This document shows, in pieces, positions 34,681 through 58,846 of a DNA stretch of 64,000 nt. Positions within the stretch are counted from its first letter, which is position 1. Each line of letters starts with the position of its first letter. The notes under the pieces are model-generated. The model was not told where the DNA came from, searched no databases, and saw only the letters and a program-made list of their open reading frames with translations. Source of the DNA: Chaetoceros tenuissimus (lineage: Eukaryota > Bacillariophyta > Thalassiosirophyceae > Chaetocerotales > Chaetocerotaceae); the NCBI GenBank assembly GCA_021927905.1, contig BLLK01000019.1, positions 1,488,001-1,552,000 on the forward strand. The letters run 5' to 3'. The position numbers were made by a program, and so were the translations under genes.

Positions 34681-37600
34681 ATGATAGTGAAACAAGCTAT
34701 TTTAACAGTGCTATTAGCAAGCTCGCATTGTAATGCGAAGGACGGAGTGAAGTTCCGTGATGCAAAGCCAAAGGTACGAATAAATGAATCGAGCAACGTT
34801 GGGGTTTAATATCTCATCATACTTGTAGAATGTTCTGAGCTTTGCATGAGCTCTGAAGGCATTTCCAATGTCTTCTATCATCATATCAAGCCATTGGAAT
34901 GCATCAGATGTGATTTGTTTGGGTTTCCAGCGGCTTGAATTCATTGTACAGCTTCATTTTTGATGAAGAACATTTGTGTCATGAATCTCTGGATATGTTT
35001 TGCAAGCCTATATGAAATATATTTGCTGCTGTACATCCTTCCATCGACCTATGTTCCATTGAGGTACAGGTATCGATCTGGGACCACCAAACACATCTTT
35101 TTCATTCCATAGGACGAGATGACTTGAACATATGAAAATGCACATGTGTTTTTGTTCATATATGTTCAATGTAGGAATCTATATTCCATATCTGATCTTA
35201 TATATGCATACATATATGTTTCAATGTATGAATGGATACATTTGTATCGCTCTGCAGTTCTTCTATTCATGTTTTACAATGTATATTCTCATTTCTATAT
35301 ATTTGGAACATCATTCGTGTCTCACTCTCTTTTTCATTTTCATAAATAGGGCTTTGCTCGAAAGCTTCGTGGAGGAGGGATGAATTCCCAGACTGTAGGT
35401 TTTGGAGGAGTTGGACTCGGACTAGAAAGAGACTCTGGATCAAAGAACGAGAAAGGGGAAGAGAAATCTTCTTCTGCCTCCTCTTTGGTTCACGATGACC
35501 CTGAAAGTTCCGGACTTGTTTACGATGACTATGGATCTGAATCTGTTTTCAAGGCGATGGATGAAGCTTTTCAGGTGAGATATCTCGACCTATGGCAAGC
35601 CTACGATGTTGCATCTTTCTAGAAAGCCGCTTCGTCTTGTATTTTTTTTTTCATATGTAAAATTTCCCATGACCGAAATGACCGCTCACATTTATATATT
35701 TTTATTATATAGTTTCATGAGTTATTGGTGGATAGCAATGATTCTACTCTTGCTACTGGTGGAGTAGCGAACGGATCAGATGCTGTCGGCGGAAAGAAGG
35801 AGGAGCAGGACGCTACTGCGATGTTCGGAGGGAACAACAAGAAGAAGAAGTCTGCATCTGCTGCTTCTTCTCTTTTTGCGGAGGAGTTAGTTGGAGCGGA
35901 GTTTGTGAAGGAGATGCTTGGAGATGCTGGATCCAACAAGTCCATGTCGGTAGGACATGGCGACAACAAGTCAAGCACTGCGGCTACTAGAAACGGTGGG
36001 TCTGCTCTCACTAGCCGTAGTACTGACATCAAGACTTCATCTTCCTCTGACAATGGAAGATCCAAAGGTCTTACTGGAGGAGGAAAGGAGGAGGATATGA
36101 AGAGAGGTACTGGAAATGAGGGTACCTATTATGGAGTTGTTGGTGGGCTGCAGGGAGTGAGAGTCAGTAATTCAAAAGATACTTCTTCAAAGGAAGGGAA
36201 GGGTACTGCTGATGCTAGTGATGGTGAGTGTTCTCTTTTATTGTATGCAGGCTTTCAATCATTTACGGAGTTTTCTGACATCTGTCTTTTTACCAAATTA
36301 GCAACTGTCATCAAGGTAAGAAGCAAGGAACAAAAGAACTTGAGAATTGTCCTTCAAGGATGTTTGAAGTCGAGAAGGTGTATTTGTTTCAAGGACACGA
36401 GAATATATCAACGTCACATTCTCGGAGAAACTACAGCTCTTCCTTTTCTTTATCTTCCTTCTCTAATTTTCACATGAGGAATGAGGAGCGTTTATGTGTT
36501 TTTCTCCAAAGTATAGGAGTACTATTCAAACTATCTCATCATTGTCAAAATCAAACTCACATCTTATTCTTTTACACTCTTTAGTCTACTCAAGATGTTA
36601 TTGATGATACTGCTAGAGCTTTAGTTGCTGAAGAGAAGGAACAAGAATCAAGAAATCTTGAGGAATCTTCGTCTTCTTCTTCTTGCTATCAAGTTACTTT
36701 CGAAACAGATATGGACTACATCTTACGAACTGATATTGACTTGGATTGTCCTTATGTTCGTGAAGGCCCTGACTATCGTGTGCCAGAAGATCAGTGTCTT
36801 GCTGTTGGAATAGAGATTGCTGCTCAGCAAGGTCTCGACCTTGTTGACAATACTCTATCAATCTTTATTGACACAGACTACTCTTTTCACAAACACAAAG
36901 ATAGCCCTGGTTATAATATAGAAAACTTTCAAGGAACCATTGAGGAGATGATAACTCGCTGTGAATCTCTTGAAAATTGTCTTGGGTTCAATACGAATGG
37001 ATGGATGAAGTCCTTCATACTAGATCAAGATAATTGGCATACCTGGACAGATGATGATGAGAAGGGATTCTACTTGAAACCTACTGCTCCATGTGGATGT
37101 TTTCTCAAGAATGTTGACACTGGCAGTGACTCCTCTTCATCCACTCCACAGTTCCAAATCACCTACAATAGAGGTAGAACATGCTCTTCGGCTTCATCTA
37201 CTGCAGGTCTTCTTTGTAAGCGTCCAAACTCTATTGTCAAGGATGGAAAAAACTTGCTTAGTTGGAATTCTCATAACAGCTGCAAAGGAGGTTGTCACCT
37301 TGAAACGAAGGCAGATACTGATGGTACATATCTTGAAATTACCCAAGAGCCTGTTTGGTCTGGTAGCTTTTGGATTCTTGACAACATTCAATTTGATGAA
37401 GGCGAAGATTTTTCAATGATTGCCAAGTTAAAAGTCAATGGAGTCGACGGAACTAGTACTAAAGCTGGCTTTTACATCAACGACAAGGATTGGTTTGCTT
37501 TTGATTTGTCCAATGAAATCGGTACAACTTCAGACTCTGCCTTTAATGATGTTACTTTGCCTGAAAACTTCTTCAGAAGAGAAGACTTTGGTACTCATAG

Positions 37601-40600
37601 TGACAAGCTTTTCACTTTCCAAATTGAACGAGTTGATGGGAGAATAAGTTTCTATATCACAGTGGGGAGTGATGAAGAAAAGGAACTTGTTGCATCGAAT
37701 GAATATAATCAAGCAATCAATAAGTTTCAATGGCGCCCATATCATGGAATCTTGAAGATCTATGAATGGAGCTTGTTTCCTACATACTCCTCTAGAGACT
37801 TCATTGTCGAGGGATATTTGAATGAAAACTCAAATAGTGTAATTCCATCTTCTTGTCACGATAAAACAGGAGCTAATTGCACACTTGAGATTTGTGATGT
37901 CGAGAAGATTGTGATAACCGCTAGCGAAGAAACCACTCTTGTTCCTAAGAATTATTGGAAGATGAAGGCTTATGGTACCGGTGTATATGATCTTGACACG
38001 TTTCATCTGATATCAAATGCGTCTCCACTAGATGTAAGTGTTTTGCATTTCTTTCTTTGTTTCCTTGCAACGATTTTGTCTCACTTTCTCATATTTGATT
38101 CGGTCCTCAATTACAGATTTGCCTTGATGATACTTCATGGTATGTCAGCGGGTCATCGAAGTACAGAGGTATGAGGTGCCAAGATTTTTCAAATGATGCC
38201 TGGTGTGATACTATCATGAAATTAGATGACTCTGCTCAGATGGGAAAGTCGATTGAGGAAGCTTGCTGTGTATGTGGAGGCTCCAAATCCTTTACAACAT
38301 ATCCATCTTTAGCACCTACGAATGCCCCGACTGTTTCTCAAATGCCTACTGCACCAACAGCACAGCCTACTGCATGCGTAGATGACGGTAGTTGGTATCT
38401 TGATGAAGATACAGGACTTGGATGTGAAAGTATCACAGAAGACATGTGTAATCTCTTTGGTGACTATGTGTACAACGAAAAGAGTTTGAAGGATGCATGT
38501 TGTGTATGTGGGGGCGGAAAGCATGAAAATGTCAAGTTGAAGTCTTGCCATCAAATCACGTTGAATACAGCTTCCAACATCATCAATAAAGGCTACTTCA
38601 AAGGCCTTGGCCATAGTTCTGGATCTGATGATGACGGCGAATATTGGTTTGTTACTGGAAGTGATCCTGCAAGTGATAATGACAACTGGAATATCACACT
38701 TCCTATTGATATGGGAGAGGACTTTGTCACGATTGCAAAGTTGAAAATTGAAAGGCTTTCAAGTAAATCGAGTGCAGTTGGTTTCTACTTGGATGATGAT
38801 TACTTTGGTTTTGACGGTGCAGGTGGCCCAATTTTCACGCATAATAATGGGTTTGATATAGTCGACAACCCTAAAAGGTTTCTCGATGACGTATTTACAT
38901 TCAAAGTTGAGCGTAGCAGAGGACACCATATCAAATTCTTCATCAACGACAAATTTGTAGGTGACAAACGTGGCTACAATAAAGCTATCAACACTCTTAC
39001 ATGGCGTCCGTGGAGAGGAAACTTGAAGATTTATGATTGGACTTTCATTCCCTCCAGTGATTTCACTTTGGATGGATACATGAACTCAGTAGGAACGAAT
39101 GTTATTCCAACATCATGCTATGATACACTTGATGATTATTGTAGTCTTGATATTTGTGGTGTAGAGAAAGTGGTGATTCAATCTACAGGAGGTTCAAGTC
39201 GGGCTTTCTTTTCCAATAGAGCTTTGAATCAAATCAATACACATACTGACATTCGACCTGGGGAGAAGCATTACATTGGTGGCTCATCAACAGTTCCTTT
39301 TGCATTACATCCATCCGATTTTCAGCCATTCATGGAGCTTGAGAAGAATGGTAATTTAGTTGCTCGAGCTTGGAATGGGAAAGAATACGTTAAGATCTAT
39401 GAATCTGGAAGAACCTTTGATTGTGATGAAAATGCTCTCATGGCTCTCTTTGATGGAAATACAGGTCTGGTTGTTGGATGTAACGATGGTACAGTTGATT
39501 GGGGAGAAGACATTATCGCCGAACAACTAGAGGAGAAAGCATGTGCAATAGCATATTTGAATGGAGCTGTGGTGTGTTTGTCTAATACAGGAGAAGTAAA
39601 AAGAACTTACGGAGGAGATGGGAATACACTTGGCATACAATACAATCACGAAGAAGGGCTTGTAGATGAAGTAACTTCCAGCTTTGAAGAGGTATGTACA
39701 TTATTATTGTATATGAATCTCATGTTTGTATTTGTTACTTTGAACTCATCTTTTTCTTGACTTTTACGCATCAGTTTTGTAGTTCCCCTGATAATTGCAG
39801 AGATGCTTCGTACCAATGTCATGACATTGAGTTGAGGCGACTTGAAGAGCCAATGGAAATTTCATCTATGGAGTACAACGTGAGAGCACATCTTGGAAGT
39901 AAAGGAGATATACCTACTGGTTCCTTTGTCATTCCTTACAGGTCGCGTTTTGATCTCACCAATGATTCGGATCTACAATCACTAGGGTTTGGAAATGGCG
40001 ACAAAATTCCATTTCTTACTTATCAAAGTGACAACAATATTCTTGCCTTTTTATACGGCCCTGGAAGGGCTTGTGGATCTCTCTACAATGCATATACTCA
40101 ACGTAAATGCTCTGGTGATAGAAGTCTCACCTTCACTAAGGATGGTCGAATTCATCTCAACTGTACTGCCGCTGACAATAACAACCAAAATTTTAATTAT
40201 ACTTTCCCAGATCCAAAGGTTACCTCACAGAATGGTCTCAACGAAAAGAATGAGCTATGCAAATTGAAATATTTCGATGGACAAGTTGTATGTATTTTCC
40301 CTGATGGTAACATTGCCTACACTTTGCCAGGTCATTCAAAACACCAGAAATGTGCACGTGCATGGTCCTTCGAGATACCTGGTTATACCAATCCAATGAA
40401 CTATCGTGGTAACAGTATTCCAAGACATTGTGTAGAGGAAGGATCTAGTTGCCATTTACGCGTATGTGGTGTGGATTCATTGAAAATCCCAGCAAGTGTT
40501 GACGTCTCTAGGTACACGTTTCTTGATGAATCAGGCAAAATGAATTTTTTTGAAAACTCTAAAGAAATGAGATATTATGAGTTCCCGTTTGGTAATTGCA

Positions 40601-43600
40601 AAGATGTGGATGGTTGGTTTGTTGGTGGAACGTCTATGTATAGTGGTATGACGTGTAATCATTTTACTGACGAAGCTTGGTGTGATACTATCATGGCATT
40701 AGATGATTCCACTTACATGGGAAAATCCATCAAAGAAGCTTGCTGTGTATGTGGAGGCTCCAAATCCTTTACAACATATCCATCTTTAGCACCTACGAAT
40801 GCCCCGACTATATCCCAAATGCCTACTGCACCGACAGCACGTCCCACTGCATGTGTAGATGACGGCAGTTGGTATCTTAATGAAGATACAAGACTTGGAT
40901 GTGAAAGTATCACAGAAGAAATGTGCAATCTCTTTGGTGACTATGTGTACAATGAAAAGAGTTTGAAGGAGGCCTGTTGTATTTGTAATGGTGGAGCACA
41001 TGTCTCTATGATTCCAAGTTTAGTTCCGACGAATCAGCCAAGTGAAGAACCTACCCCTTGTGTCGATGATACTAATTGGTCTGTCGGTGGATCATCGATG
41101 TACAAGGGTATGAAGTGCCAAGATTTTTCAAATGATGCTTGGTGTGATACTATTATGGCATTAGATGACTCTGCTCAGATGGGAAAGTCGATTGAGGAAG
41201 CTTGCTGTGTATGTGGAGGAAGTGCATTATTCACACCGCATCCCTCTGTTGCCCCTACAAATACACCAACTATATCCAAAATGCCCACTGCACCGACAGC
41301 ACGTCCCACTGCATGTGTAGATGAAATTGATTGGTATCTTCATGAAGATACAAGACTTGGATGCGAGAGTATTATGGAAGAAATGTGCGATCTTTTTGTT
41401 GACTATGTATACAACGAAAAGAGTTTGAAGGATGCATGCTGTGTATGTGGAGGCGGAATTCACTTCACAGTCATGCCATCTTCTTCAGTAGTACCTACTA
41501 TGTCTCCGGTAAGTGTGCATTCCAAATGAGGAAGAAGAAAATTTTCCTCTCACTTCAACCTAATTACACCATTTCTCTTAATTCCCTATTTTCAAAATAA
41601 AGAAATGTTTTGAATTTCAGATACAGTCCCTCAATGATAGTTTCGAAATTTCCGACTCTTTGCGCCAAGTTCGAGGCAATGTAGGAGGTGGAGTTGGCGA
41701 TGCTGATGTAAGTCATATTCAATACATTATCTTTTGTGGAATCTTGCCACTTTTGCTTTTACTTTGTGTTCTTTTCTCACAAAGAATCTTTTTCAATAGT
41801 CTGTGTTCAACTTTGCATTAAATCATGTATATTACCTAGACGACGCAGGGGGCAGTGATTGGTGGCATCAAAGCAATGTAACAAGGCCACACATTTCATT
41901 CCATGGAGATGGCCAAATCACTGCCTGGGCATTCTGTTCCACAGCAAAATGGAGAAGACCAATCTTCTCTACCAATACGCCAAAAAGATGTGATGGTAGC
42001 AAGGGACCTGTAAAGATGACCTTCACAGAGGACCGTCTAATTGAAATTAAATGTACGGAATCCAGTACTTCTCCCTTTCACAAAACAGCCGGTACAAGTA
42101 CCCCTCCACGTGATGACGGCGAGAAGTGTTTGCTCAAGTATTTTGATGGGAACGTCGTATGCATGTTCAAAGATGGGGAAATTGCATATACCATGCCACC
42201 AATTCTGTCAAATGCAAAGTGTGCACGTGAGACTTCTTTTCTTATTCCTGGATTTGTTGGTGCCAATGGTGGAAACGATAAGTATGTTCCAACGTCATGT
42301 CTAAAGAGTGGGGCTAGTTGTGAGATGAAAGTTTGTGGAGTTGATACATTGACAATCCCTGGGCATGTAGATATATCAAAGTATTCGTTTGTTGATGAAT
42401 ATGGAATAATGTCATTCTCATCAGTAACTTCAAGTGGTAGTAATGACAAGTACGAGCTCATATCTGGAGAGTATTGTAACAATTTCAAAATGCTTACTCT
42501 CACAAATAGCATCGAGATGTCCGACTCTTTGCGCCAAGTTCGAGGCAATGTAGGAGGTGGAGTTGGCGATGCTGATGTAAGTCATATTCAATACTTTATC
42601 TTTTGTGGAATCTTGCCACTTTTGGTTTTACTTTGTGTTCTTGTCTCACACGTAATCTTCTTCAAAAGTCTGTGTTCAACTTTACACCCAATCGAGTATA
42701 TTACCTAGACGATGCAGGGGGCAGTGATTGGTGGCATCAAAGCAATGTAACAAGGCCACACATTTCATTCCATGGAGATGGCCAAATCACTGCCTGGGCA
42801 TTCTGTTCCACAGCAAAATGGAGAAGACCAATCTTCTCTACCAATACGCCAAAAAGATGTGATGGTAGCAAGGGACCTGTAAAGATGACCTTCACAGAGG
42901 ACCGTCTAATTGAAATTAAATGTACGGAATCCAGTACTTCTCCCTTTCACAAAACAGCCGGTACAAGTACCCCTCCACGTGATGACGGCGAGAAGTGTTT
43001 GCTCAAGTATTTTGATGGGAACGTCGTATGCATGTTCAAAGATGGGGAAATTGCATATACCATGCCACCAATTCTGTCAAATGCAAAGTGTGCACGTGAG
43101 ACTTCTTTTCTTATTCCTGGATTTGTTGGTGCCAATGGTGGAAACGATAAGTATGTTCCAACGTCATGTCTAAAGAGTGGGGCTAGTTGTGAGATGAAAG
43201 TTTGTGGAGTTGATACATTGACAATCCCTGGGCATGTAGATATATCAAAGTATTCGTTCGTTGATGAATATGGAGTAATGTCATTCTCATCAGAAACTAC
43301 AAGTGGTAGTGATGACAAGTACGAGCTCATATTTGAATCCTGTACAGACTTACAGTCTTGGTCTGTCGGTGGATCATCGATGTACAAGGGTATGAAGTGC
43401 CAAGATTTTTCAAATGATGCCTGGTGTGATACTATTATGGCATTAGATGATTCCTCCAATATGGGAAAGTCGATTAAGGAAGCTTGCTGTGTATGTGGAG
43501 GCTCCAAATCCTTTACAACGTATCCCTCTGTTGCTCCTACGAATACTCCGACTATATCCCAAATGCCTACTGCACCGACAGCACGTCCCACTGCATGTGT

Positions 43601-46600
43601 AGATGATAGTAATTGGTATCTTCAGGAAGATACAGGACTTGGATGTGAGAGTATCACAGAAGACATGTGTAATCTCTTTGTTGACTATGTGTACAACGAA
43701 AAGAGTTTGAAGGATGCATGTTGTGTTTGTAATGGTGGAGCACATGTGTCTATGATTCCAAGTTTAGTTCCGACGAGTCAGCCAAGTGAAGAACCTACCC
43801 ATTGTGTCGATGATACTAATTGGTCTGTTGGTGGGTCTTCAGTGTATAGTGGAATGATGTGTGATGACTTTGCAAATGAAGTTTGGTCTCAAACTATCAA
43901 GGATACTTGGTGTGATACTATCATGGCATTGGATGACTCTATTAATATGGGAAAGTCGATAAAGGATGCTTGTTGTGCATGTGGAGGAAGTGCTCTTTTT
44001 ACAACGCATCCCTCTGTTGCCCCTACGAATGCCCCGACTGTTTCTCAAATGCCTACTACACCGACAGCACAGCCTACCACATGTGTAGATGATAGTAATT
44101 GGTATCTCGATAAAGAAACTCAGCGACTTGGCTGTGCGAGTATCACAGAAGACATGTGCGAACACTTTGATGAGTACATATATAATAGGAAAAGTGTGAA
44201 GGAGGCCTGTTGTGTTTGTAATGGTGGAAAACACATCTCTGTGTTTCCAAGTTTTGTACCAACAGATCAACCAAGTGTCCTACCAACATTGAGTCCGACC
44301 AGCCGACCAAGCGATCAGCCTTCTACAGTATTTTCAAAAAACCTAGAGCAGGCTAATTTAGAATTGGGATCGTGTTATCAAGTAACGATTGAAACAATTA
44401 CGGGATCTGATGCAAAATTAAAAGTTGATGGATACATGAATATAAATGGAACAAATATTCTTCCAACTTTCTGTCACGACACAGATGGTGCAACGTGTAG
44501 GATTGAAGTATGTGGTGTAAATTTCCATGACATAGCTGTGAGAGATGCAACCTCTTCTTCAAATCGTCGACTTGATTCTTCAGTAGGAGCTACATTGTGT
44601 GAGTAACTCTTTTCTTACGACATTTACATGTACGTATGTGTCGGTCTAAATCTCACTTTTTGTTTTCCCCCTTTTTATCTTTTTCAGTTGAACTTGATGT
44701 TGAAAGCAGCGAAGAGAAGGTAAGTCACACACCACAACATGAATTGAAAAGAACTCCAATTCAACTCCATCTGACACTTTTATTTATTTCAATCAAAGAA
44801 TGAATTTCAGTTTGATATCGTTCAAGATGCTCAATTTGCAGGCTCAAATGGAAAAAGAAGTCTTTCGGTGAGTTTTGACGTTTGAATTGAATTGAAATCA
44901 AAAAGGAATCGAATGAAGGAATCTAACAACTGCTCTTCTCCTATTTATCGCTCCTCTCTAGACTTACTCCGAATATCAAATTACAACCCATACTTGGATC
45001 AAAGTGGGAGAAAAATACAACATTGGAGGTCTAGCAGCTATTCCAGTCGAGAAGCAGCCATACATGGAAATACAGAATAATGGAAATATAGTTGCAAAAG
45101 CTTGGAATGGAAATGAATTTATTATTATCTACAACTCTGAGATACAAGTGACATGCGATGATGATGTAGATCCTATCGCTCTCTTTCAAGGAAATGCAGC
45201 TTTAGTTGTTGGATGTAACAAAGATACACATATAAACGGATGGCAAAAAGCCATTATTTCAGGCAGCCTTGGTAAAGATGGACTATGTGCGATTACTTAT
45301 CTCAGTGGCTATGTAGTCTGTTTGTCTAATACAGGAGCGATATTGCAGAGATATGGTAACCCTGATGGCGAAGTTGATCAGAGCAGGGCTAAAGGAACAA
45401 TTTTCCCTGAACGAATTGCAGCAGTTCAAAAAGCAACTCAAACAGAACTTCCATCTCATCAATGCCATGACATTGAGTTGAAACGTCATGAAAACAATCC
45501 AATGAAGATGACTGAAACAGAGTACAGTATTCGAGCAAATTTGAATGTAGAAAACAATGATGACTCTAGAGACTTTGTTCCTTTTGGTTCTTTCGAATTC
45601 AAAATAAATAAGAGTTACTATCTCGATGGCGATGATGATGTGAAAACATATATTATATTCCAAGGAGACAAGAATATTGTAACCTATACTTCTGGTTGTG
45701 GACCAACTACTTCTCTGCAAACAAATCGTCGTATAGACGCAGAAGCATCCTTTACAACAGAAGGTACAATTCTTGTCAAATTTGACAACGAAGAAAAAGA
45801 TCAATACATATTCCCAGAGGATGGAAATAATGGCCTCAACACAAAGAATGAACTGTGCAGATTGAGATATTTCGATGGGAAAGTCGTATGTATGTTTTCT
45901 GACGGTAAAATCGCTTACACTTTACCAGCTGCAAATATGATAAATGAAAATAATCAGAAATGTGCAAGAGGAAAATCCTTCAAGATACCTGGTTATACCA
46001 ATCCAGATACAAGTCTTGGAAACAGCATTCCACAATCCTGTGTGGAAGAAGAATCCTCTTGTCATTTGCGAGTATGTGGTGTGGATACATTGAAGATTCC
46101 AGCCAACATTGATGTTTCCAAATTTGAAATCACCAACATGTTGGGTTTAAATTCCACCAGAAGTTTTAATTCGACTGATGGATTCTATAACTTCAAGTTT
46201 TGCAGTGATTGTACTCGTCTGGACATACAGAGTGTGAGTATTTTCAAACACATTTTCACTCTTTATTGCATTTATTATTCTCAACTTATTTTTTGATTTG
46301 TTTGCAAAAGATTTCGATTAAAGTTCTTTCTGATCCAGTGATTGCTGATCCCGTACACGATATCGGGGTATCTTCTCTTCTTGATGATACAGGTTTTTTC
46401 ATTTCCAATAATGACAGCATTGAATTGCATGGCAATGCCTGGAAGGTATTCAAACTCCCAGACGAGTCCAAAGTCACCTCAACCATGCAGTTGGAACTGG
46501 ATATTGATATCGAGGACAAAGCAAATGGACATCTTATTTGCTTCGCAGACGAAATATCTGAAGATTTGGATTTTGATTATACAAATTGCCTTTCTTTGAT

Positions 46601-49600
46601 CAATACTGATGCTGCAATGTGGTCAAATGCTAAAAAAGCCTACAATCTTGCTTTGCGTAAAACTTCTACTATCAATCCTATTTCATTTAGCTGGTTAGGA
46701 GCTAGCAATGCCGTTGATGGTCTTAGTACTACCTTTACTCTTATCAAAAAAGAGAATGAAGAAGAGGCATCTCTAAATGGAGAAATAATGGTAGATTTGG
46801 AGACATCTCAAAGTATTTCAAGAATTGAAGTGTCTAGTATTTTTGGACTTCCACAAAGCTTAAATGTTGATTTTAGCAATACTGAGAATGAATGGGGAAA
46901 TAATGAAGGAACGCTGACGAATGGAAAAATTAACTTTGCCAACCCTCTTCAAGCGCAATATATTAAGATCACTCCCACCAGTGCCGAAAAAGACCTACTC
47001 ATTTCAAACATTGAAGTAATTGGTAGCAACGATCTGTCCTCGATTACGTATCCTCTGTCTGTTCTCTTTGAAGGTCGTGAAACTAGCTTCCAATACATTG
47101 CTTTGGTACAAGATAGCTCGAGCGATTCAAACGAAGGAAGATCGACAATTAGTAATATTCGATTCACCGAGACTAGCAGTAATGGTGTTAGTGGTCAAAC
47201 TCAAGCATATACGAATGATCTTGAGGGAACATACTTCCGCTTATCCCACACCTCATCCAATAAAGTATCTATTGGGGGTATCAAAAGTGGAAGCAATAGC
47301 TGTTTAGCGTTTCTTACAGACTCTGCTACATTTGATATGTCTCAAGTTTTTCTTCTAGAATGTGATGGACACATCAAGAGTCTCCAATTTCCAGAGTACT
47401 ACTTGCATATTGATGACAACTGCAACATTGAATTTATCAAGATGGAGAATATGGAGTCAATCTCATCCAAATGGCTTCTAGATCCGAATGCTTCGAACAA
47501 CATTTTCATTCAATGTCAAGGAGAGTTAAGGGCATTGACTGTAGTGGATGATGTACTAACATTAGGACCGAAACCTTCACAAGGTAAAGTTTACATTTGA
47601 ATGTGTTCTTATGCTTTTGCAATATTCGTGTTTGAAACTAACTCCATGATTTTTGTGCATCATAGACGAACAGCATTGGGCACTAGAGCGCCTAACTTCC
47701 AAGCAAATAAGTTTCATTTCTTCTTTAGAGGAATCTTCGACTTGTTATCAAATCAAATTGAATTCAGTTTCGAACATTATTAAAGAAGGACAATTTAATC
47801 TTATTGGTCCTATCTCACATAATGATGACGATGGCAGATATTGGAGTGTTAATGGAAGGAAACCGGGCGAATCTACTTCTGACAACTACGTTGTTGACAA
47901 TATACCAATTGATCAAGGCATAAAAGGCGAAAATTTTTCCATGATTGCAAAGTTAAGAGTCGAGGGGAGCGCATCTGGTGCTGCTTTCTACATCAACACT
48001 GACGACTACTTGGGATTTGATGGTGTTGGAGACAGAACAAACAAAATTTTTGTAAATGATGATTCTGCATTTTATCACGACTTGGATGGAACTGTAAACT
48101 TTTTCAATACTGAAGACTTTGGCACTCATAGTGATCAGCTCTTTACCTTCCGAGTCGAGCGTGAGAATGGGAGAATCAAATTTTATATCAATGATAATGA
48201 GGAACCAGTAGCATCAAATGAATACAATTCCACAATTAAGAAATTTACTTGGCGTCCATGGCGAGCAAATTTGAAGATTTATGAGTGGACCTTCATTCCA
48301 TCAAAGAGGTTGGGATTGGATGTTGAAGGCCACAAATTTTGGAAAGTTAATGGAAGTGATCCTGCAGATGACGACAACGACTGGGAAATCCCCCTTCCAA
48401 TTGCTACTAGCGAGGATTTTGTTACAATTGCAAAGTTGAAAATTGAAAGAATTTCCAATAAAGGAAGTGCAGTTGGTTTCTTTTTGGATAACGATTACTT
48501 TGGTTTTGATGGCCATAATTCTGGAGACCACATTTACACAGGTGACTTTGATATAGTTCAAATTGAGAGTACAAGTTATCTTAATGACGTATTTACCTTC
48601 AAAGTTGAGCGCACAGGGAACCATATCAAATTCTTCATTAACGACAAATTTGTAGGTGAAAAGCGTGGCTACTCTAAAGCGATCAACACTCTTAAATGGA
48701 GACCACGGCGAGCAAACTTGAAGATTTATGAATGGACTTTCATTAGTGATTACACTTTGGATGGATACATGAATGAACAAGGAACGAACGTTATTCCTAA
48801 ATCATGCTATGATACACTTGATGATTATTGTAGTCTTGATATTTGTGGTGTTGAGAAGAAGATGGTCGTTCAATCTACAGTGCATTCAACTCCTCGAGTC
48901 TTTTTGTCAAGTGATTTCAGGGAAGACTCATCTCTCCAATGCCATGACATTGAGTTAAAACGCTTGGAAGAGTCAATGAGCATGACTGAAACAGAGTACA
49001 GTATTCGAGCAAATTTCAAAAAAAAAAAAGAGAAGATGCCTCTGTAATGGTTCCCTTTGGTTCTTTCGAATTCGAAATGGATGAGAAATACTATCTCGAG
49101 GGTGATACAGAATCGACAGCATTTATTAAATTTCAGTATGACAAGAACGTCGTATCCTATTTTTCCGGATGCGGAGCAATATCCTCAACCAGAACCAATT
49201 CTGGTAACAATGCAAAAGCATTCTTCACAAAGGAAGGGCGAATTGTTGTCAAATATTACAATGGAGATACTGAAATATCTGAAAAAGTATTCCCAGAGGA
49301 TGGATCGATTGGTCTCAATGAAAAGAAAGAGCTATGTCGATTGAGATATTTCGATGGACAAGTCGTGTGCATGTTTCCTGATGGTAAAATTGCATACACT
49401 TTGCAAGCCGGAAATCATCATAATGAAAAAAGTCAGCAATGTGCACGAGCAAGATCCTTCAAGATTCCTGGTTATACCAATCCAGATACAAGTCTTGGTA
49501 AAAGCATTCCACAATCCTGTGCAGGAAATGGATCAAGTTGTCATGTACGTGTATGTGGTGTGGATACATTGAAGATTCCAGCCAACATTGACGTTTCCAA

Positions 49601-52600
49601 ATTTGCAATATTGAATGATTCCGGTAAAAGTCTTCGTAGAACTTGGCATCGCAAAGATGATTTCTTTGAGTATGAATTAATGTCTACCGCGTTTGGAGGT
49701 CGATCTGTCTTTCCAACCACTCCAGTAAGTACATTTGTTGATTGAGGTATTTTTGTATAGGCAAAGTTTCTAAGTATTTTGTATTTTGTTAGTTTCCGAT
49801 CCAAATTGATACCTATGAATCACCTGGAACTCGGGAATCTTCTGGTCGACGTCTGTCATTGGAATCTTCAGATTATGAAATGAGTAATAGTGATTCAAAG
49901 ATGAATGATAATGTGTCATTGGGTAAGTTGCAGTGTCTATGTTTTCATGTGTATTAATGTCATGATGTGACATTTGTAAATGAATTTGGTTTGGTTTGAA
50001 TCTCACTCTGTGTTTTTCCCATTTTCATCTTTTTCAGTTGACGTCGCTGAAGGCAGCGAAGAAAAGGTAAGCCACACAACAACTAATGAAAAATTGAAAC
50101 GAACACATTGGATCGATTCATGAGCTCACACATAACACGCATCTCTCTCTCTCTTTAGGTTGTTTTATCATCCAATATTCGTCAAGATGAACAATTCGAG
50201 AAATCATCGGATGGAAACAGAAGGCTTGCGGTGAGTAGCATTCTTCTTTCTTCTTTGTCTTTCAAAGCATCATTCCTTTTCAGCTACTAACTCGCTAGTA
50301 CTGCTCTATATAACCTAACAGGCATACAGCACCTGGTCTGAAAACTCCATAAAACCCGGCACATGGATCGAACCAGGCAGAAAGTACTTCATTGGAGGAG
50401 CAGGAACACTTGAACAAGAAAAGTGGAAACAGCCATGGATTTGGCTTAGAGAATGGGGAGTTTTCGAGGCATGGCATGACTTTAAAGAAGACAAAAACAC
50501 AAAACTCTTTAGTTTTGATTTTACAAGCTTGAAAACCGGATGCAATGCTTTAGAAAAAGGTTGGGGAGGTTACTTACAATCTGACCGTCATCTTATTTTT
50601 GCATGCAAAAAGAACGGAAGTAATGAATTGGATAAGGACGATGGTAATTGGAATGGTGGGTTGAAATTCGATCAATACAAATTTGGTCCAACATATGAAC
50701 TTGGTTCATCATGTGCATTGGTATATCTCAATCGAAAAGTCGTTTGTATGGATTTAAATGGACAAGTCTTTTATTCCATTGGTGATGGTGTCTCTGGTTT
50801 TGTCGACAAACAAATCAGATATCAAGAACTTCCTTATCAAGTCAAACGAACAACAGCAGCATCCTGTCCAATGAATTTTGAAGTGGAATATGGAGATTGT
50901 GTACATGCTGTTCGAAAGCATACGGATACCATGCTAGTACCATACAACAAATATTGTACTTTGGATGATAAACAGAGAGATTATCGAGGAAACATTTCTC
51001 AGGCCGGGCCTGACCTAATCTCATATTGTCAGAAATGGTATTTCCATATATCTAACCCTACCTCTTGCGGTCTAGTAAAAGAAAACTGTCTAAAAGAAAA
51101 CTATTGTCGAAACCCTGACAATAGTGAGAAAGCTTGGTGCTACACTTGGGATTACGACGATGATGGAAATAGCAAGAAATTTTGCAATGTACCAAGATGC
51201 ACAGACTCAAATTACTTGGATATGAAAGTGATTTCAAAAGATGATCCTGAGGCTAGTAAATACCCCGAAAAATGCTCATTCCGCAGAAACAGCGATGGGT
51301 TTGTTCAAGCAGTGTTTAATTTTGGATCTCCTAGCGAGGCGAAGATTAATCTTCTTTGTAAGAAGCCTCGTCCCATTTATGAAATTGATTACCTGGAACA
51401 AACAAGTCAATGCGAAACAGGTCTTGACATAGAAAAGCAAGATTGCTTCTACGCTGGTCTTGAGTCACTTGCGATGCAAAATATTGAATACAACCATGGA
51501 TTATTCGAATCAAATTCGGATGACAAACCATGTGGCTGCTATTATCTTGGTGGCAAAATCTACTTTGGCACAGGAACATGTGGAACAAATCCTAATGCAA
51601 AATTTTGCAGGAGACCTGTCAAGTACATTATGCCAAACATGGATCCGTTGCTTTGTCTAGGTCGAGACTCTTCTTCAGATCCTTTAAAAGTTTTGAATTG
51701 TGAATCTAATTCTTTCAATCCGCAATGGTTTTATCAAAAGCAAAGCACGACTTCTGAATACATTGCCATTTATTACAGAGCCCATATAGCTGACCAAAAG
51801 CAGTGTCTGAATGGTAGCCCAAACCTTTCTTTGGAACCCAAAGAATCAAATTCAAAATGTGATTTCGAATGGGAGTTCCTACAAGATGGCCAAATCAGAC
51901 ACAAAGGCAGCAATAGTGTTATTGAACTTGGCTCAGATAATTCTTCTCTCTCATTGCAAGAAAAGAATGATTTTAAAGCCAACCAAAAGTGGTTCGTGAG
52001 CGATCGTAGAGTTAAAAAAGAATCAAAAGTCGTCAATGCTCATTTCAAAGGATCCTATCAGAACGGCATCTTTTTCCAAGATCATACTGGTTTCGCAAGA
52101 GTCCAGAATGAGGAAGTGCATTTGTATGGAAATAGTTGGAAGCTTTTTGAGTTTGTAGGAAGAGGAGTGCATTTTCGAACAAAGCTTCAATTCAAATATA
52201 AGATTTTTGAGACGGCAGAAGATCATTTCATTTGCTTTGGTACCAACTACAACTACCATGTTTCCAAGGAAGTCAAACGCAACTGTGTAAATTTAGAAGA
52301 TTCTCAACTCGGGTCAAATTATCAAGTAGGTTCTGATAATAATGACTGGGCAACTGTATCTATCCCAATCTTTGACTTTTTGAAAGAGGAAAGTTTAACT
52401 CCGAAAATTGACTACATTGCATTTATTCAAAATAACGATGCAGATCCTTTGGATGGACATTCTGCCTTTTCTGATTTCCGAATTGGTACTATTGAATTGG
52501 GTACACCTTCATTCAGTTGTGGAGACAACTTTATCGCTGCAGATAACGAGGGCATGAGACCTACCAAGAATCTTAACACAGACACAGATTTTTGCGTAAG

Positions 52601-55600
52601 CTCGAACTTGAAGTCTCTTGTTTCTCATAAGGAAAGAGATGAGACAACATATGTCGAGTTTGCTACTCGTGGTTACAGTTTGGACTCGCTTGAATTGTAC
52701 GAGGCGCCAGATTTAACTGTCAAAGTCGAAGGTAAAACTACAATAGATGAAGAAAAGGTCTCTTTCGACGTTGCAACAAAAGATTACGCTGGAAAGAAAT
52801 TCCATGTAGTACAAACAAACGATACAAACGATGCCGGAAATCCATTCCAATTCCAATTCATTACCAAATGTTCCGGAGAAGTGTATGAAGACACAAATGA
52901 TTTGACTGGTGCTCCTCGTAACTTTGTTTCCTATCAAGAAAAGGGTCACGTGAGGTTCAGATTCATGGACAACTCCCTTTGCGAGGATGGATTTGCCTTT
53001 ACTCGTTTCGACAATCCATCTGAAAAAGAATTCTTGAACAAAGAATTCTTTGATGAAGGTGTAACCTTTTCCCCAATTTTCTATTTTAGCGGGAAAGATG
53101 ATTCTGGTGAAGATATAACCCCCGAGACAGAGGCATCGGATGATTTGACTCTTTCAACACTGACTGTAGGTGAAGAGTATGGATATTGTATCCGTGCTGT
53201 GCATAGAGAAAGGTACATGGATACAATGGGATTAGATCGAAGTGATGATGTTATTGATACGAAGTCCTCTTCCTCCACATGTCATGTGCATAGAATTCGT
53301 TGGGAATCATCCATTAGTGGAAAAGTTACTACCGAACCAAATGCCGGGACTCTTCCAATCAAACACGTCAGGATAGACTATGAATTGATGACAGAAATGC
53401 AGGAGCCTATTGACTGTGATGGATGTTCCGGTACAGTTTATACAGATCCTGGAGGAAGTTTCAATATTGACTTTAATCTCGATCATCCATTGCTGAAAGG
53501 AAAGGGAAGTGAGTCAATGCCTGTTAGACTCAAGTACAGCAAGGTTACCAAGTTTGGTGAAAACACAATCAAGCACATCTTTTTATGCAATAATGGATTG
53601 GAATTTTGCAAGGAAGAAGGAAATCTGGTTTATCTCAAGCATTTGCACTTTGAAGAACCTATCCATTTGTATGACGATACATCTGTTCCTTTCCGGGGAA
53701 AGATTTTCTATCATAACACTCGCTTCCCTGGCACAGAGGGATGTCCTATTGTGGATGCAGAAGTGTGTTTGGTACATCATACAACTGCCAATGCAGATAG
53801 TTCTTCCCTTACCAAATACGATCTTGTGTGTGTCAAATCGAATACTCTTGGAGAGTACAATGCTCCAATTATCATGGGTAGTGAAGTTCATGAAGTAGAT
53901 GTACGTTATCATGGACATAAATTCGGGAAATCATTGCACAATCGTTGGAATTACACAGAAGGTATAATTATTGGAGACAGTGAGGTTTACAGTGGTCATG
54001 ATTTTATGGATATATCGAAAGCTACATTGAGAGTGGAAGGTGAGTCGTGGTTTTGTTTGTCTTTCTCTTTCTTTTCTTCTCTTTCCATTCTAAATTTCGA
54101 ATTCTCTTTCAAAATCAAGTTGTTGGAGGAGACTGCAGCAAACCTCTCGGTGATAGCAAAGTGAATGTAAAAATTGAAGGCTGCGATTGGCATGGGCATA
54201 GTTTTGAATACAGCGGAATTCGTAAAGAATACAATGTGCCTCCTACTCTTGTCAAGGTTCAGGTTACTAGTAATGAATATCCTCACATTGAATCTTACTT
54301 TCAAAATGGAGACAGTCCAAGAACTGAATCTATCGATTTGACCGATGAACATATTCTTGAGGATGAAATAGAGAATCGACAAGATGCTGATGATGAAGAG
54401 GTTTCGGATGAGCCATCATTTGCTCCAACTTTATCTTCTGCCCCAACAGCGTCATCGGAGAGAGATCAGCAGGCAGAAGCAAAGAAAACAGAAGAAGATC
54501 AAATATCACTCGTTCGTTTCCAATACGATGGAACTCTTGCAATGGATGTGCAAATCACAAGTGGAGTTGAGGATATCAGTGCATGTGACAGTAGTACATT
54601 TATTTCTAATATTCGTACAGAGTATGGTGCAGATTCATTTCATGTAACTACGAAGGGAAACAAAGTCAATTTTAAAGTGATGCTAAAGTTTGATCTCATT
54701 AAAACAGCAGAGCAAAATATCTCGTGTGATATCGTTGGCGATGACTATACTGTAACAATGATGAATAACATTGGTGGAAGCTGTTCTGATGGATGCACTC
54801 TACAAGTAAATCATGATGAAGAAGATGGAACTAAAACTGGAGGTGCTCGTGCTGAAATAGAAAAAGACAATGAAGATGATATAGCAAATCAAATTACTGT
54901 GGGCGAGCCAAATATAATTTCTCCCTACACAAAGGTACGCTCAACAATCTATTTCTTTAAGAATTTTAGTCTTGCACTTGAGCATACTGACAAGTCGTAA
55001 TAGAATATTTTCTTTCAGGTTTCTGGGAATGGAGCTAGTGTGAGTCACAATGCACATTTCTTTATCCAAGGAATTGTGCAGGGTGGAGAGGGCAAGTCAT
55101 TTGCATTGCCCAATGCACAACCTGTCATGATATTGAGGGATCCACGTAAGTTGTCGGCTTCATATTTATTCTTTTCTTCAAAGCATCATCTCATCTCACT
55201 TATTTCAACATCAACAGCGGGAGGCTTGTCCTATGCTAAATTTGAAAATGTTCACACAAGTATGAAACTTGTGAAGGGATCAACTACAGTATCTAAGAAA
55301 ACAGGTCTTGAATACGAGAATTTGATGGCTACCAAACAGGTTTCCTCTAGTTGTGCTGGCATTGGTGCATCTTTATGTAAGGATATCCTAGACTTGAACA
55401 TGCGGGCCGGATTGCATTATGAAGGGTCGCTTGGTGGTAATGTCAAAGATTATGAAGAAGAAAAGTCAAATTCATACTCCACCACATGGAGCTACACAAC
55501 AAGCACATCTCCAGACATAGCTGGACGCATGTCTGACATTTTTGTTGTTCCCAATATCTTTGTGGAAGTGACAACTTATACAATTGTTGCTTGGCTTCTT

Positions 55601-58600
55601 CCTGAAGAGAAATGTAAACCGTATGAAGTTGAAGAAGGTAAACTTCCAACCTACACTGATTTTGACATTAATGTAAGTTTCCATGACGTATTTTTGTTTT
55701 TGAATTGTTCATGTCTCACACATTTGCCTCCAGAGTGAAGAAACTGCATTAGCATTTTTTTCAAGGCATCATATTGTCAACGTCAAAGTTCCAGAATTGC
55801 AAGCGGCTAGAGAAGACAAGGTGAAAGAGAAAGAGAGAATGAAGAATGACAATGGAGTTTTTAATGTAGTATGTTGCAATGAACCTCCATGCTTTGAAAA
55901 CTCTCCAAACCTCAGGACTTGTGACCTGACTGATTGGAGTAAAGTAGTAGAAGAAGTAAATGGATTGGACGATGCCATTAATGATTGGAATGATACTTTG
56001 AACATCGAAGCAGATATCGCAGACATTAATGAATTCTTTGGATCAAAAAATCCTTTTATTTACGAAATTAATGATGAAGGCGGTCGCCTTTCAATCGATA
56101 ACCATCCATCGGGACTAGTTCCACCTTTTTACGAGAAAGCACCATGTGGCTATGATAATGTGAATGGGATTTGTGCAAAAGAGTGCCATCTGTGCGAAGA
56201 TGGGAAATGTATTGATCACACCGAAACTGAGTCAGGGGAATGTCCCGCGTCTGTCATGGAAAGACGTGCTTTTCTGCAGACAGGTGCAAATACAAATAGA
56301 ATGCAATTCTCTGGAGGAGGAGGTGTCTTCGAAATGACGATGAATAATGAGTATAGCAGTTCTAAATCAGGTTTGAGCTCTTGGCATTTACCAAATGTGG
56401 AATTTGTAAGTAAACAAGGAAAAACCTGTCTAAAACATCATAGTTTCTCATTGATTTTATTTAAAGGAATCAAAACTTCAATTGAAATTGCTAGAAGAGC
56501 CAAAATTTATGGGGGTAGGATTTGAGCATGAAGCAAAACCTGTTCTAAAGCATCTGCACGTCGTTCATACATCTCACAAAGGCGATTCAGTACAAAGAGG
56601 TACGTCAGTTTCTTATGGTTTAGGAGATGAGAATCTAGGAGACGAGTTTGTAGTTGATGTTCATTTTGATAAAAGATATGGAACTTTTGCTTTTGATACT
56701 GTTGCTGGAATCTCCAGATGCCCTCATGAAGAAGGAACACTCAAAGCAGAAGATCCGCAACTAGTGTTACTTAAGTCACCCTCGCCATACGTGGACCCTA
56801 ACTCTCCAATGCTTTTTGAAGTTGAAATGAAGAATTTGGGAGAGGCCGAAGGAAATTTCCAACTTGAGGCGGAACAAAAAGATGAAAAATATCTCACAAT
56901 AGTTGTAGATGGAACAGAAGTTACTGAGGCCGGTATACCGTTTACACTCGAAAAGCGGGACAAGAAAAGAAAAATTGTTGCTCTATATCGAAATCCTTTT
57001 TCTTACCACTATAATCCTGTTGAGTTGACGATCAATACATGTGATGCTTCTTCAGAAACCATAAGTTTGTCCAACGATTTTGACTCAAATCAAAACGAAA
57101 CAATTGTTTTCCTACAGCCATGTCCTACCATCAAGTGGTCAGGGGATTTACAACGCGACCGGGAATTTGTACTTAATTTGCAAGCACCTGAACTTTTGCC
57201 TGTTGAAATTTTCAATAACGAGCGAATCGGAGGGACTTTAAAAGCTACAAAAGAAGAACGACGACTGGAGGCAGTACAACTCAAATATCGTAGATTGGGT
57301 GATGTAAATTGGAGTGATGCATACAAATCTACGGCAGACAGCGACAAAATGGATTTTCTGGAAACACTTGAAGATGACTATGGATACATGTCTCTTGAAT
57401 GGGACACCGAAAGTCTTGCTGATGCAACTTATGAAATAATGGTTGAATCTCAGTGTCAATTAGTTAGTAAGTACACTGTTTGCATTTATTTCCGACTTTC
57501 AAGATGAGGTTCTAACCAATATAATTGCAGATGGCGGTCCAGAACTAAGCAGATTCCGAGAGGAGATTATCGTAGGTGTCAAAGACAAGATTGCACCGAA
57601 GCAATATGGCAAAGCACTCCCATTAAAAGATGATATTCTTTTTGGGGAAGAAATGACAGTCCTTTTCTCTGAGAAGATTGACTGTTCCTTCCCATTCAAA
57701 TTTGACGTCACTCTTGAAATCCAAGACTTCTACGATTCGACTACATCTGAATCCTGTGTAGACGGAAATGAATTTTGCCATTTAAGATTGAAGAAAAGTA
57801 ACAACGATCTTCAGATTTCTTGTGAAGGCCGTAAAATTGGCTTAATTCCAGATTTTTCAGTCTTGGGCGATGTGGAGAAATTCCTTGGTAAATCATTCCA
57901 TGTTGAAGTTGGAAATGAAGGGGGTGGATCTCTTTCTCATGTGTTTGATGTGAATGGAAACCGCTTGAAACACAATGTCGAATTCGATAAGAGCTTTCTT
58001 GCACTTGATCTTTACACAATAACTGCAAAAATAGATGTGACAATCGATTCTTGCCCTGCTTGGGTAACATCAGAAATGGAATCGGAGAAAACAGCTGAAC
58101 TTGCATCGATACTTGGACTATCAGATTCTTCAAGAATCAAAATCACTGACCAACGTTGCTCAGGAGGGAAGGCACAATTTAGACTTCTCATCACGCCACC
58201 TTCTACCAACAACGGTCGATATTTGAGAAACCTATTCCAGAAAGATAGCATGTCTGATTTAGATTCTCTCAAGTTCTTATCCAAACTACGGGAGATGAAC
58301 AATCATAGAATTGTCAATGGAAGATATCTACAGGAAGATTCTCATCAAGTCAAGATTACTCTTGTGGAAATCATTCCAGGTGAACAAGACAGGCTTCGTT
58401 TGGAAACTCCTGTCGAGCTATTGCGAGAAGAAAGACACTTGCAGAATATCATGTCGTTTGAAGGTGATATTCATCATATTCGAGAGAATGACTTGCCTGA
58501 TGATATTGTAAGAAATAGCAACGAAGAGCAGTCGCAGATTGAATTGCTTCTCTTGGAGCAACAGAAGAAGATGGATGCAATGCGTGAAGAGGATACTAGA

Positions 58601-58846
58601 AAGATGAAGAAGATTGAAACATTAGAAGAAAAGATGGAAGAATTGCGCATGGAAGATGCAGAAATGCGCAAGGAGGATAATAGAAAGATGGAAGAAATGC
58701 GCAAGGAGGATGCAAGAGCATTGAAAGAGATGCAACAAAAGGAACACGAAGAAATAAAGGAAGTATTTATGGCATCGATTGCAATCATTGTAGGAACCAT
58801 ACTCATGGTTGGAGGAGCAATGTTTATATACTTTCGTAGATCATAA
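34681..58846 (+). CDS. Giant multidomain secreted/membrane-anchored protein, 25 exons, about 7,140 residues
   Basis: Exons: 34681-34773, 35350-35574, 35713-36223, 36302-36315, 36585-38033, 38117-39691, 39775-41508, 41621-41707, 41800-42576, 42669-44598, 44688-44719, 44811-44867, 44962-46233, 46311-47583, 47666-49724, 49793-49922, 50038-50066, 50159-50230, 50322-54039, 54120-54934, 55019-55145, 55218-55672, 55734-56405, 56467-57466, 57531-58846. Every intron is GT-AG and phases match, except one base missing in the A-run at 49018-49029. Order: signal peptide (MIVKQAILTVLLASSHCNA), RKL motif (residues 35-37), Ser/Gly/Lys-rich region, ConA-like modules (exons 5, 6 and two in 15), ten Cys modules ending ACC-C (exons 6, 7, 10), five QCHDIEL/CGVDTLKIP-type modules (7, 9, 10, 13, 15), F5/8C-like region (14), kringle and trefoil-like segments (19), regulatory-like beta folds with ILRDPPGG (19-22), coiled coil and one membrane helix ending YFRRS (25). 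A cell-surface or wall scaffold role is inferred. Exon 4 is the least certain exon. Confidence 0.82.
35350..36223 (+). other. N-terminal Ser/Gly/Lys-rich region of the giant protein
   Basis: Exons 2-3 begin GFARKLRGGGMNSQ and continue with biased sequence: GFGGVGLGLERDSGSKNEKG, KKKKSASAASS, STDIKTSSSSDNGRSKG. Composition is close to silaffin-type proteins, and RKL is placed as in the two small genes at 23-25 kb. Confidence 0.65.
38117..41508 (+). other. Cys-rich ACC-C modules with PT-rich linkers (exons 6-7)
   Basis: Two alternating module types. One is SWYVSGSSKYRGMRCQDFSN with DAWCDTIM and EACCVCGG; the other is SWYLDEDTGLGCESITEDMC with FGDYVYNEKSLKDACCVCGG. They are joined by linkers such as APTNAPTVSQMPTAPTAQPT. 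Six lie here (two in exon 6, four in exon 7) and four more in exon 10. The W...C...ACC-CGG pattern is common in diatom extracellular proteins. Confidence 0.75.
41651..43336 (+). repeat. 869-base tandem duplication containing a complete exon plus intron
   Basis: Unit 1 starts at TCCGACTCTTTGCGCC (41651) and the same words restart at 42520, an offset of 869 that persists to about 43336. The offset equals exon 9 (777) plus its following intron (92). Exonic identity is near complete over some 600 bases; the intron and the first codons of exons 9 and 10 differ more. Confidence 0.93.
44599..44961 (+). other. Micro-exon linker cassette 1 (exons 10 end to 13 start)
   Basis: Exon 10 ends after SSNRRLDSSVGATL (phase 1). 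Then come a 32-base micro-exon encoding ELDVESSEEK, a 57-base exon ending GKRSLS, and a module starting TYSEYQITTHTW. The same architecture recurs at 49923-50321. Confidence 0.75.
49018..49029 (+). other. 12-A homopolymer that breaks the frame of exon 15
   Basis: Upstream frame reads EYSIRANF then Lys codons and stops at 49047. The frame continuing the module (VMVPFGSFEFEMDEKYYLEG) is offset by one base. Thirteen A residues would keep the frame. The flanking sequence on both sides is fully module-like, so an assembly error or recent indel is more likely than decay. Confidence 0.8.
49923..50321 (+). other. Micro-exon linker cassette 2 (exons 16 end to 19 start)
   Basis: Exon 16 (SSGRRLSLESSDYEM, ending phase 1) is followed by a 29-base micro-exon (VDVAEGSEEK), a 72-base exon ending DGNRRLA and a module starting AYSTWSENSIKPGTW. 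This parallels cassette 1 in phase, exon size and RRL motifs. A TACTAAC branch site lies near 50285. Confidence 0.75.
50954..51206 (+). other. Kringle domain in the giant protein
   Basis: Reads CTLDDKQRDYRGNISQAGPD, then CQKWYFH, LKENYCRNPDNSEKAWCYTW and KKFCNVPRC. These match the kringle order YRG...C-x-W...NYCRNPD...WCYT...FC-x-V-x-x-C. Two extra Cys (SCGLVKENC) lie before NYCRNPD. It sits at about residues 4,651-4,735. Confidence 0.85.
58500..58846 (+). other. C-terminal coiled coil and membrane anchor of the giant protein
   Basis: About 80 charged residues with heptad-like Met/Leu/Ile spacing and repeats of MRKEDNRKMEE/MRKEDARALKE type precede one helix (MASIAIIVGTILMVGGAMFI) and a four- to five-residue basic tail. 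This predicts a type I anchor. Confidence 0.8.

What the first reader, a model, noticed from the sequence alone, without database searches (positions are those of the whole stretch)
34681..58846. A single 25-exon gene for a protein of about 7,140 residues
Splice sites I could place by eye join all open frames from 34.7 to 58.8 kb into one transcript, beginning with a signal peptide and ending with one membrane helix. All 24 introns are GT-AG, and phases agree at every junction if one A is added to the run at 49018. Intron phases are only 0 (17) or 1 (7), never 2. A roughly 780-kDa modular surface protein with this domain mix (ACC-C modules, kringle, F5/8C-like, ConA-like, trefoil-like) is not one I recognise. 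I infer a cell-wall or cell-surface scaffold or adhesin.
Basis: partly seen in the sequence, partly recalled or inferred. Interest (0 to 1): 0.93.

Follow-up and report, generated by a model that had tools for sequence, protein, structure and literature searches.

The report
Giant eukaryotic surface protein, bacterial-type core
One large gene appears to encode a roughly 7,170-residue cell-surface protein built of repeated, partly lectin-like modules, and its last third shares ancestry with a family of large surface proteins of Bacteroidota bacteria.

Summary
The observation largely holds. Exon chaining mostly favours one plus-strand gene ending at 58846. My curated model has 24 exons and 23 GT-AG introns (not 25 and 24), 17 phase 0 and 6 phase 1, from 34681. 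A frame break lies in an A-run at 49018-49029; I read the protein as two pieces (4166 and 3009 aa, about 800 kDa together) without mending. Repeated modules lie on both sides of the break, and two segments carry the same three-intron set, so one polypeptide is well supported. Exon 1 is the weakest part.

New: residues 1426-2622 of the second piece are collinear with the core of a family of about 3,200-residue Bacteroidota surface proteins (M[VI]LRDPPG[SG] in 81 of 82): 155.8 bits, best of 42 controls -1.3. The match crosses six introns, and one splice creates the motif. No Pfam or NCBIfam model covers this core above cut-off. Kringle and F5/8C pass Pfam; ricin-B does not.

Most likely a surface-anchored lectin-type adhesin or scaffold on an old bacterial-type core. 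Precedent: diatom trail proteins of about 900 kDa and over 1 MDa (PMC11420354). Species, expression and binding are untested; 'diatom' is unproven.

The parts
34681..34773 (+). Exon 1, putative signal peptide (by eye)
   Evidence: not chosen with neutral splice scores; a 576-nt intron follows
35350..36315 (+). Exons 2-3 (35350-35574, 35713-36315): low-complexity N-terminal region
   Evidence: Coding log-odds 15.6 and 42.4
36795..37226 (+). Cys-containing region (first piece, residues 378-521), one copy found
   Evidence: only weak local matches to the second piece
37407..37775 (+). ConA-like (CONA) module copy 1 of 4; others 38720-39049, 47932-48297, 48415-48744
   Evidence: Iterated profile search within the protein, E 2e-45 to 1.5e-60; no Pfam match
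38120..44228 (+). Ten ACC-C modules in five long/short pairs, starting at 38120, 38375, 40597, 40852, 41059, 41314, 43341, 43596, 43803, 44082, with Pro/Thr linkers
   Evidence: alignment A6 holds nine of the ten
39314..50783 (+). Lectin-like (LEC) modules: 39314-39610, 39949-40392, 41803-42258, 42672-43127, 45046-45348, 45574-46002, 49050-49481, and a partial copy 50664-50783
   Evidence: QxDxNxVxY exact in two copies, 0.002 expected in shuffles
41637..43332 (+). Tandem duplication, offset 869 nt, 97.1% identical over 827 nt, intron included
44599..44961 (+). Three introns (phases 1,0,0), paralogous to those at 49923-50321
   Evidence: Same order, phases, small exons and similar sequence
46392..46619 (+). 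SOMA module copy 1; copy 2 at 52089-52295
   Evidence: one copy on each side of the frame break
46680..46985 (+). F5/8 type C domain
   Evidence: PF00754, E 4e-8, 33.8 bits against cut-off 28.2
49018..49029 (+). Run of 12 A in which the open frame changes
49923..50321 (+). Three introns (phases 1,0,0), paralogous to those at 44599-44961
50970..51200 (+). Kringle domain; six canonical cysteines assigned by eye
   Evidence: PF00051, E 2e-10, 41 bits against cut-off 34.3; plasminogen best single kringle i-E 3e-5
51762..51992 (+). Ricin-B-like region, below Pfam's cut-off
53670..57682 (+). Bacteroidota-type core: collinear segments 53670-54139, 54665-55850, 56328-57682, crossing six introns
   Evidence: HMM of 64 bacterial proteins, 155.8 bits, E 1.8e-48
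55127..55225 (+). MILRDPPGG motif, joined by splicing out intron 55146-55217; DPPGG is in no unspliced frame of the window
57531..58846 (+). Last exon: end of core, charged probable coiled coil (by eye), one hydrophobic helix (about 58754-58834), short tail ending FRRS

Best explanation
The locus is one eukaryotic gene for a secreted protein of about 7,170 residues (about 800 kDa, pI 4.8), anchored by a C-terminal membrane helix. The N-terminal two thirds is a string of Cys-rich modules (lectin-like, ConA-like, ACC-C pairs on Pro/Thr linkers, F5/8C, kringle, ricin-B-like) that would contact carbohydrate or protein ligands at many points. The membrane-proximal third is a stalk, probably of beta-sandwich domains, that shares an ancestor with the core of large Bacteroidota surface proteins, followed by a probable coiled coil and the membrane helix. 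It most likely works as a long multivalent adhesin or cell-cover scaffold, holding the lectin-like arm away from the cell. Shown by computation: gene continuity (with one frame break), module repetition, kringle and F5/8C homology, core homology, one C-terminal hydrophobic stretch. Inferred: secretion, sugar binding, adhesion, bacterial origin of the core.
For: One-gene chain (which could give only one gene; three of four settings) and in two of three settings; all segments coding. LEC, ICGV and SOMA modules on both sides of the frame break. Two segments with the same three-intron set. Core match of 155.8 bits across six introns, best of 42 shuffled or reversed controls -1.3; 76 of 82 bacterial sequences match the window core at E below 1e-3 by phmmer; two subfamily profiles give 150.4 and 155.9 bits. 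A splice creates the MILRDPPGG motif, found in no unspliced frame. Aureibacter's protein has four LamG stretches and a sub-threshold T9SS sorting-tail match, so the bacterial relatives look secreted. Kringle and F5/8C pass Pfam. QxDxNxVxY exact in two LEC copies; that this is the bulb-lectin mannose motif is recalled.
Against: No transcript or protein evidence. The frame is broken once in this assembly. Neutral splice scores drop exon 1 and at one of three settings split the gene at 47.6/47.9 kb; free gene boundaries split it too. Three short exons have another stop-free frame scoring about as well or better (44688, 44799, 50038). Pfam sees no B-lectin or ConA domain. The LEC structure model failed (pLDDT 37). 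No ligand-binding residue was tested. No eukaryotic collection could be searched.
Confidence: 0.6

Rival explanations
1. Two or more adjacent genes: one of lectin/ACC-C modules (about 34.7-47.6 kb) and one of core modules (about 47.9-58.8 kb).
For: A neutral splice score with a dear intron and a cheap gene boundary gives 35380-47600 and 47941-58846; cost-free gene boundaries split it further.
Against: The alternative start at 47941 falls inside a ConA-like module (47932-48297). 22 of 23 introns are 61-269 nt, short for intergenic gaps. LEC, ICGV and SOMA modules occur on both sides, and the three-intron sets are paralogous across the proposed split.
Confidence: 0.12
2. A decaying pseudogene or broken allele: the frame break is real and the product is truncated near residue 4,166.
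For: The frame changes inside a homopolymer and the N-terminal frame meets a stop about ten codons later.
Against: Only one break in about 21.5 kb of coding sequence; coding log-odds are positive on both sides; long A-runs are common sites of sequencing error (recalled); the tandem duplication kept its frame.
Confidence: 0.1
3. A mating or gamete-recognition receptor rather than an adhesin or cell-cover scaffold.
For: Large lectin-like ectodomain with one membrane helix; the Seminavis paper lists gamete fusion among functions proposed for adhesive diatom proteins (PMC7335047, passages seen).
Against: No expression data at all; nothing found in the modules is specific to mating.
Confidence: 0.2
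4. The resemblance of the core to Bacteroidota proteins is convergence of generic beta-sandwich strings, not common descent.
For: The first tblastn signal was only E 6e-3; fold matches of the bacterial core are generic beta-sandwich strings with TM 0.05-0.13 by query length; the window sits on a very long branch.
Against: Collinear profile match over about 1,200 residues, 155.8 bits against -1.3 for the best control, sharing MxLRDPPG, invariant in 29 aligned bacterial rows apart from x.
Confidence: 0.03

Closest known systems
Bacteroidota LamG / RDPPG surface proteins (Aureibacter tunicatorum WP_309940553.1 and relatives, L001-L082)
   Same: Same order over about 1,200 residues: segment before, RDPPG region and following domains
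   Different: Bacterial proteins are about 3,200 aa (67 of 82 open frames over 2,900 aa: 2992-3891, median 3221) and, in Aureibacter, carry LamG domains. The window protein has other modules and ends in a hydrophobic helix; no sorting tail was found in its last exon
Craspedostauros australis adhesive-trail proteins CaTrailin4 (about 900 kDa) and Ca5609 (over 1 MDa)
   Same: Similar size, modular, extracellular (PMC11420354, passages); trail proteins reported as acquired from bacteria (title of 10.1111/nph.19145 seen in that paper's reference list; the paper is not held)
   Different: Trailins are defined by a choice-of-anchor A domain (recalled); no such match in the pieces scanned. No Ca5609 sequence was available, so kinship with it is open
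Diatom vWD/GDPH adhesive proteins (Seminavis, Amphora)
   Same: Secreted, adhesive, multi-domain (PMC7335047, passages)
   Different: No GDPH string in either piece and no vWD match in the Pfam scans of the pieces given
Animal kringle proteins (plasminogen, HGF, prothrombin)
   Same: One kringle (plasminogen whole-chain E 5e-25, summed over five kringles; best single i-E 3e-5)
   Different: No protease or growth-factor domain seen; the kringle is one module among many

Membership tests
Bacteroidota RDPPG core family | Significant collinear match to a profile of bacterial members | tested here: met
   155.8 bits, E 1.8e-48 among 44 sequences, three collinear segments; best of 42 controls -1.3 bits
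Bacteroidota RDPPG core family | Motif M[VI]LRDPPG[SG] (81 of 82 bacterial sequences; 80 of 82 have RDPPGS, 2 RDPPGG) | tested here: met
   Window has MILRDPPGG after splicing
Bacteroidota RDPPG core family | LamG domains and T9SS sorting tail (as in Aureibacter; the tail there is itself sub-threshold) | tested here: not met
   No LamG or sorting-tail match in the window pieces scanned; so filed as sharing the core, not as a full-length member
Kringle domain | Pfam PF00051 above cut-off | tested here: met
   41 bits against 34.3; six cysteines assigned by eye
F5/8 type C domain | Pfam PF00754 above cut-off | tested here: met
   33.8 bits against 28.2
Ricin-B lectin | Pfam PF00652 above cut-off | tested here: inconclusive
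   27.2 bits against 29
Bulb-type (B-) lectin | Family match and QxDxNxVxY motif | tested here: inconclusive
   Motif exact in 2 LEC copies; no lectin family in Pfam for 7 members; NCBIfam putidacin lectin E 9e-4, 18.8 bits against cut-off 275
ConA-like / LamG | Pfam match | tested here: not met
   No such match in the exons that hold the four CONA modules
Trailin (CAA) family | Choice-of-anchor A domain (recalled definition) | tested here: not met
   No such match in the pieces scanned; not every exon was scanned with NCBIfam; that a model is in the library is recalled
GDPH adhesive proteins | GDPH motif | tested here: not met
   String absent from both pieces
Diatom protein | Organism is a diatom | not testable with these tools
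   No genome held for the window; no eukaryotic sequence collection on hand

The most novel reading that the evidence does not exclude
A eukaryotic alga took over, long ago, the stalk core of a Bacteroidota surface protein and built it into a giant multivalent lectin adhesin with animal-like modules: a founding member of an undescribed eukaryotic adhesin family, and the first link of the RDPPG core to a eukaryote in the sources searched here.
Probability: 0.35. Interest if true: 0.75.

Novelty: new variant of a known kind. Interest (0 to 1): 0.6.

Why it matters
Very large surface proteins shape adhesion and contact with bacteria in microbial eukaryotes, yet few are understood. This one ties a giant eukaryotic ectodomain to a bacterial surface-protein core for which Pfam and NCBIfam gave no model above cut-off. 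That gives a testable domain family in both bacteria and a eukaryote, and a possible further case of adhesin parts shared between the two.

Tried and rejected
A first exon chain with refitted splice weights over-called introns (35-47) and was discarded. Structure of the LEC region: pLDDT 37, not used. Structure of the bacterial core (L003, 850 aa, 29 rows): pLDDT 65.4, pTM 0.54; Foldseek against PDB gave generic beta-sandwich strings (alpha-2-macroglobulin, complement C5, central-pair proteins) and a local match to major sperm protein (TM 0.53 by target length), and against viral models nothing specific; no function was read from these. PDB sequence searches with the core and LEC profiles: no hits. 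ACC-C profile: four weak hits (best E 0.009, 25-28 positions each), judged chance. Viral contigs: no relatives of the core, LEC or ACC-C. Phages: no match for a 780-aa N-terminal segment. Tree of 54 rows: the window's branch is 3.83 changes per column and lies between two bacterial subfamilies at a midpoint root, with unusual composition, so no donor or direction can be named. A shared module for the two CGC stretches was not supported. Papers, listings only: the single papers holding the terms are on limpet adhesive and phosphoglycerate kinase; RDPPGS occurs in one unrelated paper; listings showed nothing on such a protein by title or abstract start. Rfam at gathering scores and tRNA scans of the window: none.
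Full report
The window is eukaryotic: neighbours include an HSP110/Sse1-like HSP70, a TRM1 methyltransferase, an UNC-50 protein and a DUF4336 protein, and the locus has many short GT-AG introns. No genome is held for it, so the species is unknown.

Gene model. A first exon chain over-called introns and was discarded. With stricter penalties, and only one gene allowed, the chain runs from 35380 to 58846. With codon statistics from 11 other ORFs of the window and a free number of genes, one gene 34681-58846 wins under three of four settings, with 23, 23 and 21 introns; without a cost for gene boundaries it splits. The splice weights there came from my curated introns, so I repeated it with a neutral consensus score: one gene 35380-58846 at two settings, two genes at the third. 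The curated model has 23 GT-AG introns, 17 in phase 0 and 6 in phase 1. All 25 coding segments have positive coding log-odds; for three very short exons (44688, 44799, 50038) another stop-free frame scores zero or more, once above the chosen one. Exon 1, with the putative signal peptide, is the least certain piece.

The frame break. The open frame changes in a run of 12 A at 49018-49029. The automatic chains pass it by weak alternative introns, which would remove residues that by eye match other copies of the module. I read the protein as two pieces of 4166 and 3009 residues and made no repair.

One polypeptide. An iterated profile search on the two pieces finds 10 ACC-C modules, 8 LEC modules (one partial), 9 ICGV elements, 4 ConA-like modules and 2 SOMA modules. 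LEC, ICGV and SOMA occur on both sides of the frame break. A six-frame search of the window with ACC-C, LEC, CONA and SOMA strings found them only inside this locus. The segments at 44599-44961 and 49923-50321 each carry three introns with phases 1, 0, 0 around small exons of similar sequence, which supports those splice sites by paralogy. A split at 47.6/47.9 kb would start a gene inside a ConA-like module.

Named domains. Kringle: 41 bits (cut-off 34.3); against plasminogen the whole-chain E of 5e-25 sums five kringles, the best single one has i-E 3e-5. F5/8C: 33.8 bits (cut-off 28.2). Ricin-B: 27.2 bits, below the cut-off of 29. LEC: exact QxDxNxVxY in two copies against 0.002 expected in shuffles, and a looser form, written after seeing the copies, in five further copies against 0.064 expected in all; Pfam does not recognise the module.

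Bacterial core. A tblastn of 1273 C-terminal residues against plasmids gave one hit, a LamG protein of Aureibacter tunicatorum, E 6e-3. Pairwise BLAST gave E 2e-9 around the RDPPG region. A scan of bacterial and archaeal genomes matched 225 stretches; 118 were confirmed and 80 kept; by title 78 of the 80 are Bacteroidota (genus placement partly recalled), one KSB1 and one unclassified. All 82 loci then in hand hold an open frame with the DPPG motif; 81 of 82 have M[VI]LRDPPG[SG]. A profile of 64 of them scores the second piece at 155.8 bits (E 1.8e-48 among 44 sequences) in three collinear segments; the best of 42 shuffled or reversed controls scores -1.3, and the first piece gives no match at E 10. 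In phmmer of the window core, 76 of 82 bacterial sequences match at E below 1e-3. The match runs over six introns of the model, and MILRDPPGG arises only when intron 55146-55217 is spliced out: DPPGG is in no unspliced frame of the window. Pfam and NCBIfam have no model above cut-off over this core in Aureibacter or in the window; weak sub-threshold matches there are CarboxypepD-regulatory-like, SpaA and ALK/LTK. PHROGs and PADLOC were not searched.

Spread. In samples of whole genomes the core occurs in 9 of 296 from the phylum of L003 and 8 of 82 from the phylum of L015, the centre genomes counted; not every first-look candidate was scored, so these are lower bounds. Among them is a shorter subfamily. 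The window matches both subfamilies about equally (150.4 and 155.9 bits). In a tree of 54 rows it sits on a very long branch between them, so neither donor nor direction of transfer can be named.

Function. A putative signal peptide, Cys-rich repeated modules, one C-terminal hydrophobic helix and a core shared with bacterial surface proteins all point to the cell surface. Multivalent lectin-like modules point to adhesion or a cell-cover scaffold. This is inference. Very large modular proteins are known from diatom adhesive trails (PMC11420354, passages), and GDPH/vWD proteins from Seminavis (PMC7335047, passages); the window protein lacks the features tested for both. The Trailin paper itself is not held.

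Noticed in passing
41637-43332: Tandem duplication with an 869-nt offset, 97.1% identical over 827 nt including an intron: apparently a recent gain of one LEC module.
   Followed up: partly
34250-34450: Near-identical short repeats upstream of exon 1 (CATGTGCATGATGAATGACAGACCGCTTG...), seen by eye.
   Followed up: no
6848-8173 (-): Rhodopsin-type seven-helix receptor match just below Pfam's cut-off (28.3 against 30.5 bits).
   Followed up: no
9757-11004 (+): PC-esterase open frame (29 bits against cut-off 27), with a weaker NXPE match.
   Followed up: no
L087-L106: A shorter bacterial subfamily of the core, open frames 1324-2393 aa plus two of over 4,000 aa (L094, L095), on its own branch (99/97 support).
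   Followed up: partly
L001 3798-13823: The core of the bacterial family has no Pfam or NCBIfam model above cut-off in Aureibacter, although 118 stretches were confirmed in one scan.
   Followed up: partly
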